Shown here: positions 41,517 through 43,900 of the stretch, one piece after another | Position numbering within the stretch: the stretch's first letter is position 1 | Layout: the number at the start of each line of letters is the position of its first letter | Assembly: GCA_902634075.1 (NCBI GenBank) | Contig: CACPJA010000009.1 | Span: forward strand, 1-46,017 | From: an uncultured Gammaproteobacteria bacterium | Lineage (GTDB): Bacteria > Pseudomonadota > Gammaproteobacteria > Steroidobacterales > UBA11654 | Length of the DNA stretch: 46,017 nucleotides | Direction of reading: 5' to 3' | The notes under the pieces: generated by a model | What the model was told of the DNA's origin: nothing | Seen by the model: the letters and a program-made list of their open reading frames with translations, nothing else | Databases searched by the model: none | Program-made: the position numbers and the translations under genes

Positions 41517-42494
41517 TCATTCTTCTAGCAAATAAATGAGTGCCTGGCTGCCAGGGCATTTCAAGCGAATAGCTTTCAAGTCATGATCTTGTTTAAGGTG
41601 AATGAAACATTGCTCTGAATTATTTAGGTCATTCTCTGAAATAACCTTTTGAATATCAGGGATAAGAAAACCTTGTCCAAAATATCCAATATTTGGCGGA
41701 CAGGCATTACTGATATTATTTGGTACCGAGTAATTAATAGGTTCAGAAAGTGCAATCTTTCCATAAAAATGGCTCCCTTGCATAAACGTGACTAAGGTTC
41801 TTCCATCATCGGGTCTTCTAAGAAATTGATTGGATATTTTACTTGAGAGCTCATCGCTAAACATTTGATGCATTCCTAGAGCCCCCGAATAAAATTCCTT
41901 GGCTGCTTTTGTGTTGCTGACACAATGAGATGTTGTCACAATCTCTGTAAAACCTTTTTCAGTGGTCCCATTGGCATTAAAATATTTGCACATTTCTTGT
42001 ATTGATTGATTTTCTGAGTTCTTTGGCAATTGAACTAAATTAATAGCGATACCGTCAGGACCATCAACAATAACTTCTATCGGGGTCCCTACGTTATCCC
42101 CTATTTGATGCTCTGCGGGTTTAGACCATGAAAGATAGCCCTTACTCTCTAATACTTCTACTGACTTGAGAATATCTTGTACATAAAAATTAATATTCCA
42201 AAAGCCTCTTACCATTCCCGCATCAAGATCACTTCTTATGTATTCACCTTTAAGGTCTGGGAACTCTATTAACAATAACTGGCCAATCTCACTTTTCTCT
42301 CTTCGGCAAATGGATTGTCTTATCTGGGTTCCTTCAGGAACATTCCAGATATTATTTTCTTCAGCTTGATACTCAAAGATGGGCGATGCTTTTAACCCAA
42401 TAATCCCTGAATAAAATTCAATCGATTGAGCAAGATTCTCTACACAAACCATTGCAAAATTCAATTGGGCTTGATTTGCTTCAATTTTTGACAT
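41517..42494 (-). CDS. Two-domain VOC (glyoxalase/extradiol dioxygenase fold) protein
   Basis: A 325-residue protein of two vicinal-oxygen-chelate domains, about residues 8-135 (AQLNFAMVCVENLAQSIEFYSGIIGL, KGYLSWSK, DGPDGIAINLVQLP) and about 165-323 (TTSHCVSNTKAAKEFYSGALGMHQMF, IRLKCPGSQALIYLLEE). Domain pairing resembles extradiol dioxygenases, but I cannot place the His-His-Glu metal triad with certainty, so the activity may be isomerase, lyase or dioxygenase. It lies upstream of the LLM oxidoreductase on the same strand and is divergent from the methyltransferase fusion, 44 bases away. Confidence 0.8.
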   Translation of the reverse strand: MSKIEANQAQLNFAMVCVENLAQSIEFYSGIIGLKASPIFEYQAEENNIWNVPEGTQIRQSICRREKSEIGQLLLIEFPDLKGEYIRSDLDAGMVRGFWNINFYVQDILKSVEVLESKGYLSWSKPAEHQIGDNVGTPIEVIVDGPDGIAINLVQLPKNSENQSIQEMCKYFNANGTTEKGFTEIVTTSHCVSNTKAAKEFYSGALGMHQMFSDELSSKISNQFLRRPDDGRTLVTFMQGSHFYGKIALSEPINYSVPNNISNACPPNIGYFGQGFLIPDIQKVISENDLNNSEQCFIHLKQDHDLKAIRLKCPGSQALIYLLEE

Positions 42495-42538
42495 AAAACA
42501 TTCCTTATATAAATCATAACAATGAACTAATTAGAAAG

Positions 42539-43900
42539 ATGACGCAAGAATTACAAACTGAGATTGAACAAGTCTTCAAAGAAGCTGAACGTATTTGGGA
42601 TTCACAAAAGTATGGCGATCTAAAAAGACTCTGGGATGAGGATGATCCTGATCCATTTTATTTAGCCGAGGAACAAGCGGACTGGAAAATCGGCTGGGAT
42701 GAGCTAAAAAAATATTGGGAACCTGTACCTGGTAAGAGAATGCTTGAAGCTATTCGTATGAGATTTTATAACATTAAAGTCAAACCTTTGTCGGATGATT
42801 TCATTTTTGCGGTCGGCTGGGTCAGACACGATATGAAAATGAGAGGCCCAATGAAAGCTTGGGGCGGAGATGCAAGAATCAGCGCCCTGTTTAGAAAAAA
42901 AGAGGACGGTTGGAAATTTATAGCCTACACGGAAAGTCATAAGACTCCTGTAATTTATATGCAAGAGCTGTATGCAAAATGGTCAAAAATACCTCTAATC
43001 CACACGATTACAAAACGTTTTCTTATGCAACTCTATGAAAGAAATGTTCATCCTAAATTTGAACCCTTCAGACGAAGGATCATGGACGATGAGAACAAGG
43101 AATACAAAGTCAGTATAAAAAGGAGATTAGGCTTTTTAAAACCTATTCTGATTAACCTTTACAACAAGATCATTGGAAAGAAGGTGATACCAAAAGCCTA
43201 TATACCTGGGCTAGTTCCTTGTCTAAATGGAAGAGGCTTTATGGAAGAAGACCTTAATGATGTTTCTCAGTCCTTTGTTGAAGAATCTTCAAAAATGGAT
43301 GGGCTATCACTTGATGTTGGCTGTGCTTATGGAATCGCAACGATTGCTGCTTTAGAAAAAGGAGCTGAAGTGCTTGCATCGGATATGGATCAGGGCCATC
43401 TTGACCTTCTTTTAGAAGAAACTCCAGATGAACTAAAACCTAAATTAAAAACTAAGGCAGGGAAACTACCAGATATTGATTTTGAAAATGATTCATTTGT
43501 TTCAATCCATTGCTCTAGATGCTTACACTTTTTAAAGCCAGATGAATTAATTGAGACCATACAGAATATGTACGCATGGCTTAAACCGGGAGGTAGAGTT
43601 TATTTAATTACTGATACCTGTTTCTCGGGACCATGGAAAAACTATCTTCCAGAATATGAAAAGAAATTAAAAGCCGGAGACCCTTTTCCTGGATTTATTG
43701 AAGATGTTTTAGATTGTTTACCCGTGCCAAGAGTACCCAAAGGTATGACACCCCATATGAACTGTTTAGACCCAGATACTCTATCCAGAGAGTGTAAATC
43801 TGCTGGATTTGAAATAATCACAGCAAAATTCTTTGGGCCTGCAAGAGCTAGTTCTGATTACGGTAAGGACCATGCAGGGATAATTGCAGTAAAAAACTAA
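42539..43900 (+). CDS. Fusion of an NTF2/SnoaL-like domain and a class I SAM-dependent methyltransferase
   Basis: A 453-residue two-domain protein. Residues about 5-150 look like an NTF2/SnoaL-like fold (RIWDSQKYGDLKRLWDEDDPDPFYLAEEQADW, then GWKFIAYTESHKTP at its end). A basic, helical linker of about 90 residues follows. Residues about 240-453 are a class I methyltransferase: motif I LDVGCAYG with Asp259, ASDMD at the ribose-binding acid, CSRCLHFLKPDELI and LKPGGRVYLIT. Both domains are read in one frame with no sign of a frameshift. The family combination is not one I recognise. The 3' end overlaps the BolA gene by four bases on the other strand. Confidence 0.77.
   Translation: MTQELQTEIEQVFKEAERIWDSQKYGDLKRLWDEDDPDPFYLAEEQADWKIGWDELKKYWEPVPGKRMLEAIRMRFYNIKVKPLSDDFIFAVGWVRHDMKMRGPMKAWGGDARISALFRKKEDGWKFIAYTESHKTPVIYMQELYAKWSKIPLIHTITKRFLMQLYERNVHPKFEPFRRRIMDDENKEYKVSIKRRLGFLKPILINLYNKIIGKKVIPKAYIPGLVPCLNGRGFMEEDLNDVSQSFVEESSKMDGLSLDVGCAYGIATIAALEKGAEVLASDMDQGHLDLLLEETPDELKPKLKTKAGKLPDIDFENDSFVSIHCSRCLHFLKPDELIETIQNMYAWLKPGGRVYLITDTCFSGPWKNYLPEYEKKLKAGDPFPGFIEDVLDCLPVPRVPKGMTPHMNCLDPDTLSRECKSAGFEIITAKFFGPARASSDYGKDHAGIIAVKN

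What the first reader, a model, noticed from the sequence alone, without database searches (positions are those of the whole stretch)
42539..43900. NTF2/SnoaL-like domain fused to a SAM methyltransferase
One frame joins an NTF2-like domain, a basic helical linker of about 90 residues and a methyltransferase with clear motif I. NTF2-like domains in biosynthesis serve as cyclases or binding pockets, so the fusion could methylate a substrate held by the first domain. I do not know a described family with this layout.
Basis: partly seen in the sequence, partly recalled or inferred. Interest (0 to 1): 0.5.

Follow-up and report, generated by a model that had tools for sequence, protein, structure and literature searches.

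The report
NTF2-like domain fused to methyltransferase
One marine bacterial lineage carries a real, conserved gene that joins two ordinary protein families, a cup-shaped NTF2-like domain and a probable small-molecule methyltransferase, which a related lineage makes as separate proteins; it is a modest new domain combination whose substrate is unknown.

Summary
Confirmed: ORF 42539-43900 (+, 453 aa) joins an NTF2-like domain (Pfam SnoaL_3, residues 9-133) to a class I SAM methyltransferase (Pfam 258-352). AlphaFold2 gives an NTF2 cone for residues 1-135 (best Z 14) and a class I methyltransferase. The "90-residue linker" is mostly the NTF2 family's C-terminal tail plus a 21-residue insertion; the junction is about 25 residues. 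The full-length fusion is in 6 of 11 held genomes of the window's family; the other five lack it cleanly, most simply by one loss. It was not found in 40 genomes of related family f15, where the halves are separate genes, nor elsewhere in order, class and phylum samples, at strict thresholds. The nearest unfused methyltransferases (group B) had no NTF2 gene nearby (0 of 15 loci); sister group A did in 3 of 10. One methyltransferase relative is a domain of a PKS/NRPS megasynthase. The LLM neighbour is inherited synteny; the VOC neighbour is partial (4 of 6 fusion genomes, 0 of 5 others). Best reading: a tethered small-molecule methyltransferase whose NTF2 cup binds or processes the same substrate. 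Substrate and coupling are untested. No Pfam or NCBIfam model found covers both halves. Interest is modest.

The parts
42539..43900 (+). fusion gene, 453 aa (ATG 42539, stop 43898-43900)
   Evidence: intact orthologues in 5 other genomes of the family
42539..42943 (+). NTF2-like (SnoaL_3-type) domain, residues 1-135
   Evidence: Pfam SnoaL_3 9-133; AlphaFold2 model of 1-200, VIA-align Z up to 14.0 over 1-135 against NTF2-like structures
42965..43027 (+). 21-residue insertion (143-163), absent from the four nearest unfused NTF2 proteins; helical in the model
   Evidence: alignment A2; helices 137-147 and 152-167 in the model, low confidence
43028..43108 (+). C-terminal tail of the NTF2 family, residues 164-190
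   Evidence: aligned with the tails of unfused NTF2 proteins L068-L071
43109..43183 (+). junction, residues 191-215, basic (net +7); the least conserved stretch in 4 of 5 pairwise comparisons
43184..43897 (+). class I SAM methyltransferase, residues 216-453; motif I LDVGCAYG at 258, acidic DMDQ at 282
   Evidence: Pfam Methyltransf_25/11/23/12; Foldseek E 1.5e-10 to MtfA 3g2p; motif positions
41517..42494 (-). two-domain VOC/glyoxalase-like protein, divergent from the fusion with a 44-base gap; accessory partner candidate
   Evidence: present at the locus in 4 of 6 fusion genomes and 0 of 5 fusion-less ones

Best explanation
It is a lineage-specific gene fusion that makes a tethered small-molecule methyltransferase. 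The C-terminal class I domain transfers a methyl group from SAM to an O, N or C atom of a small organic substrate. The N-terminal NTF2 cup binds that substrate, or carries out the neighbouring step on it, and the fusion keeps the two together. Shown: the two domains, the intact fusion in one frame, purifying selection, and the separate existence of both halves in a related family. Inferred: SAM-dependent activity (from the fold and motif I), a small-molecule substrate (from relatives, one of which is a domain of a PKS/NRPS megasynthase), and cooperation of the two pockets (from the fusion itself and from a few gene neighbourhoods).
For: Domains and folds. Conserved fusion in 6 of 11 held family genomes. 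Purifying selection on both domains. Halves as separate genes in family f15. Unfused NTF2 and methyltransferase genes about 5.7 kb apart in two Chromatiales-labelled MAGs (L070, L071), and a more distant NTF2 relative 2 kb from the methyltransferase in G080 (L042). Methyltransferase relative (39% identity, E 3e-56) at residues 2449-2697 of a 4523-aa megasynthase with KS, AMP-binding, FMO-like, KR and carrier domains on an Agrobacterium vitis plasmid. Family-wide residues in the NTF2 part (W20, W32, D33, P39, Y41, E45, W53, Y59, R113, W125 in 21 of 21 unfused relatives).
Against: The fused methyltransferase groups with group B relatives (support 94/86, below the starred threshold), and 0 of 15 group B loci have an NTF2 gene nearby; the linked cases (3 of 10 loci) all involve the sister group A. 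Five genomes of the genus live without the gene. No substrate, no activity and no model of how the domains face each other: 134-199 and 214-240 are under pLDDT 50.
Confidence: 0.5

Rival explanations
1. The NTF2 domain is an assembly hub, not a pocket. As in the CaMKII association domain, it makes the methyltransferase a dimer or higher oligomer, and chemistry occurs only in the C-terminal domain.
For: CaMKII hub structures are among the best structural matches (Z 13.3 to 2w2c, 12.7 to 1hkx) and among the top Foldseek rows.
Against: Tailoring-type proteins and ring-hydroxylating dioxygenase beta subunits match equally well (Z 13-14), and Z differences under 1 are ties. The family keeps many polar residues, more than a mere interface would be expected to need (inference).
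Confidence: 0.25
2. The NTF2 domain is a catalyst in its own right (dehydratase, isomerase or cyclase) and the protein is a true two-step enzyme.
For: Structural neighbours include LinA, a putative scytalone dehydratase, a bile-acid 7-alpha dehydratase and ActVI-ORFA. D33, E45 and R113 are kept in 21 of 21 unfused relatives, R119 and E132 in 20 of 21.
Against: H97 is kept only in the nearest relatives, and position 21 is Asp or Asn among them. Active-site positions of the known enzymes were not mapped on the model, because no coordinates were available.
Confidence: 0.2
3. The fusion is a near-neutral by-product of genome compaction: two independent enzymes translated together in a small genome without functional coupling.
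For: Genomes of this family are listed at 1.1 to 1.6 Mb. The gene is dispensable in five of eleven genomes, and the nearest unfused methyltransferases are not linked to NTF2 genes.
Against: The fused frame has been kept intact in both genera of the family, and over amino-acid divergence down to 68% identity.
Confidence: 0.2

Closest known systems
SnoaL_3 (PF13474) within the NTF2-like superfamily
   Same: Sequence match just above the Pfam cut-off at 9-133 and the same fold
   Different: Fused to a methyltransferase. The review of the superfamily (PMC3924330, passages found by term only) has no occurrence of 'methyltransferase' in its main text; for the domains it treats it names fusions to kinases, peptidases and other hydrolases
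Class I SAM methyltransferases (Methyltransf_25/11); structures MtfA, CypM, TehB
   Same: Fold and SAM motif I
   Different: About 16-20% identity to these in the structural alignment; no named NCBIfam equivalog reaches its cut-off (best CpaM, 37 bits of 180 needed)
Methyltransferase domain of the A. vitis pRvVAR031a PKS/NRPS megasynthase (WP_180641731.1)
   Same: 39% identity over 250 aligned columns, E 3e-56
   Different: Embedded in an assembly line, next to a carrier domain; no NTF2-type domain among its Pfam matches
Separate NTF2 and methyltransferase proteins of family f15 (e.g. L070, L071)
   Same: NTF2 55-58% and methyltransferase 40-41% identical to the fusion, encoded about 5.7 kb apart
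   Different: Two genes; that methyltransferase belongs to group A, not to group B with which the fusion groups

Membership tests
NTF2-like superfamily / SnoaL_3 | Pfam gathering score reached | tested here: met
   22.7 bits whole protein, 25.3 bits N-terminal part, cut-off 22
NTF2-like superfamily / SnoaL_3 | cone-shaped NTF2 fold | tested here: met
   model m9c08b1ce2328 (mean pLDDT 62.6): Z 14.0, rmsd 2.2 A over 120 residues to Caci_6494 6p77; range 1-135
SnoaL-type polyketide cyclase | catalytic acid/base and cyclase activity | not testable with these tools
   no coordinates to map the active site; no assay
LinA / scytalone dehydratase type enzymes | Asp-His catalytic dyad (recalled, from no call) | tested here: inconclusive
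   fold matches; H97 and D21 are not family-wide, but the dyad was not mapped onto the model
Class I SAM methyltransferase | Rossmann-like fold with SAM motif I | tested here: met
   Pfam Methyltransf_25 50.6 bits against cut-off 27; the 50 best Foldseek rows shown are methyltransferases; LDVGCAYG at 258
Class I SAM methyltransferase | methyl transfer from SAM | not testable with these tools
   needs an assay
CpaM, TehB, BioC, UbiG and other NCBIfam equivalogs | curated score cut-off | tested here: not met
   best 37 bits against 180 (CpaM); all 17 families listed are below their cut-offs
PKS/NRPS methyltransferase domains | domain inside an assembly-line protein | tested here: not met
   sequence relative only; no synthase domain in P0001

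The most novel reading that the evidence does not exclude
A two-step enzyme in which an NTF2 cup and a SAM methyltransferase share one substrate, evolved by fusing members of two separate families, and used together with the divergent VOC enzyme in a small-molecule pathway of small-genome marine bacteria that has not been described.
Probability: 0.2. Interest if true: 0.5.

Novelty: new variant of a known kind. Interest (0 to 1): 0.25.

Why it matters
A fusion points to partners: it suggests that a group of mostly unassigned NTF2-like proteins in these gammaproteobacteria works together with a group of unassigned methyltransferases. It gives a single construct with which to look for their common substrate. 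Otherwise it is an ordinary combination of two common folds.

Tried and rejected
Linkage with the LLM gene as evidence of function: rejected, because LLM, BolA and the 2OG-Fe(II) gene stay in place in the five genomes without the fusion. The 90-residue dedicated linker: rejected. The group A cluster (type II DMSO reductase family, nitrilase-type enzyme, SDR, VOC, sometimes NTF2) as the parent neighbourhood of the fusion: not supported, because the fused methyltransferase does not group with group A. Substrate from named families: none reached a cut-off for the methyltransferases. Sequence relatives of the NTF2 part in the PDB: none meaningful (best E 1). NTF2 part on plasmids: no match. Fusion on plasmids: 40 records match, 0 cover 80% of the query. 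Promoter and terminator scans: no excess of promoters over shuffles (4 found, mean 6.7), though one 10-of-12 match (42488-42517, +) lies just upstream of the start codon; 3 terminator-like sites (mean 1.3), all inside the gene.

Limits. Literature: searches are search listings; PMC3924330, PMC8851701 and PMC5300972 were seen only as passages found by term. None shows an NTF2-methyltransferase fusion. The named-genome scan used only two peptide patterns, both in the NTF2 part, so it is narrow. Genome searches used strict thresholds (1e-55 in order and class, 1e-40 in phylum, 1e-75 in f15), and in the samples of order, class and phylum at most four first-look candidates per genome were scored, so distant independent fusions could be missed. 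Some of the 25 f15 loci are short on one side because the contig ends (L100 most of all; also L099, L111), so the zero for group B is a lower bound; L107 was put in group B through its similarity to group B genes and their neighbours, not by a tree row of its own. Rows dropped before the trees: 86 methyltransferase hits became 44 after removal of near-duplicates and 43 after removal of one fragment (L024); 50 NTF2 hits became 26, so that the NTF2 tree and residue counts hold 5 of the 6 fusions. The single loss rests on rooting by the other genus: without a root the tree also allows one gain.

Full report
What is there. The frame 42539-43900 (+) encodes one protein of 453 residues. Pfam finds SnoaL_3 at residues 9-133, just above the curated cut-off, and Methyltransf_25 and its sister models within 255-428. 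No NCBIfam equivalog reaches its cut-off.

The fold. AlphaFold2 with twelve sequences gives mean pLDDT 66.8; most ten-residue blocks of the methyltransferase after residue 240 score 71-95, while 134-199 and 214-240 lie under 50. The Foldseek rows shown are methyltransferases, led by MtfA. A separate model of residues 1-200 (mean pLDDT 62.6) matches NTF2-like structures over residues 1-135, best Z 14.0 at 2.2 A over 120 residues. Polyketide-related proteins, a putative scytalone dehydratase, dioxygenase beta subunits and CaMKII hubs are all within about one Z unit.

The linker. Aligned with unfused relatives, residues 164-190 belong to the NTF2 family's tail, 143-163 are an insertion, and methyltransferase homology starts near 209 (G170, G173). 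Residues 136-215 carry net charge +11, of which +7 lies in 191-215. Three more distant unfused NTF2 proteins (L043, L044, L049) have extra residues in the same place, so the insertion is not unique to the fusion.

Distribution. The full-length fusion is in 6 of the 11 held genomes of the window's family, covering both of its genera. In the order sample of 396 genomes the same six are the only full-length matches at 1e-55. In class (369 genomes, 1e-55) and phylum (398 genomes, 1e-40) samples only the window's own genome has it; these samples overlap in part. In the 40 held genomes of family f15 no fusion was found at 1e-75; the two matches cover the methyltransferase part only. Named records of the fusion are MAGs labelled Gammaproteobacteria (four) and Woeseia sp. 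(one).

History. In a tree of four neighbouring proteins the six carriers and the five others fall on two sides of one branch (100/100). The genome of the other genus (G010) is a carrier, and the five without the gene are in the window's own genus; rooted on G010 the pattern is one loss. In the five, BolA and LLM are direct neighbours, so the gene is cleanly absent rather than unassembled. Selection is strongly purifying: dN/dS 0.03 for the whole gene against G009. For more distant pairs dS is near or beyond saturation, and in those four comparisons the junction is the least conserved part.

The separate halves. Family f15 carries NTF2 relatives and at least two groups of methyltransferase relatives. 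The fused methyltransferase groups with part of group B at support 94/86, just under the starred threshold. Of 25 f15 loci fetched around methyltransferase genes, 3 hold an NTF2 gene: L042, and L102 and L103, which are the same places as L070 and L071. All three are group A (3 of 10 loci); of 15 group B loci none does. L102 and L103 come from one genus (g45), so there are two independent cases at most. This is weak support for cooperation and tells against a simple origin from neighbouring genes.

Neighbourhood chemistry. Group A genes sit with a molybdenum enzyme close to the type II DMSO reductase family (857 bits, below that model's cut-off of 985), its iron-sulfur subunit (502 bits, above the cut-off of 481), a nitrilase-type enzyme and an SDR. 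Several group B genes sit beside FtsX-like permease and ABC-transporter genes; others beside thiolase, SDR and Rieske oxygenase genes, and one beside S-adenosylhomocysteine hydrolase. A relative with 39% identity is a domain of a PKS/NRPS megasynthase in A. vitis, and another match lies in frame in a 4828-aa reading frame of R. lusitanum. Together these favour a small-molecule substrate; they do not name it.

The window's own neighbours. The divergent VOC gene, 44 bases away, accompanies the fusion in G000, G005, G009 (with frame breaks) and G010. It is absent at the locus in G001 and G007 and in all five fusion-less genomes; four of these five have a distant homologue (36-39%) elsewhere. It is a candidate partner, not a proven one.

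Verdict. It is a new variant of a known kind. Function beyond 'probable small-molecule methyltransferase with an NTF2 cup' is open.

Noticed in passing
L031 (G009:C1:86000-104000): The 98%-identical relative has several neighbouring genes (2OG oxygenase, VOC, LLM, TonB receptor, NmrA-like) split by frame breaks while the fusion is intact; probably assembly indels.
   Followed up: partly
L070, L071, L042, L112-L114, L118: Cluster in family f15 with a type II DMSO reductase-like enzyme (distantly like ethylbenzene dehydrogenase), iron-sulfur subunit, nitrilase-type enzyme, SDR, methyltransferase and VOC, sometimes NTF2; not every locus holds every gene.
   Followed up: partly
L127:4657-18228; L128:3814-18300: Very large synthase genes on rhizobial plasmids with an inline methyltransferase related to the finding; the one scanned (L127) is a PKS/NRPS hybrid that also has an FMO-like domain.
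   Followed up: partly
G005:C1:58679-59113 (L050): A second, unfused NTF2 relative (39%) in a genome that also has the fusion.
   Followed up: no
families f13 and f15 of the order: Many unfused NTF2 relatives, several copies in some genomes, next to varied genes (copper amine oxidase, cytochrome c, DUF1838 and others).
   Followed up: partly
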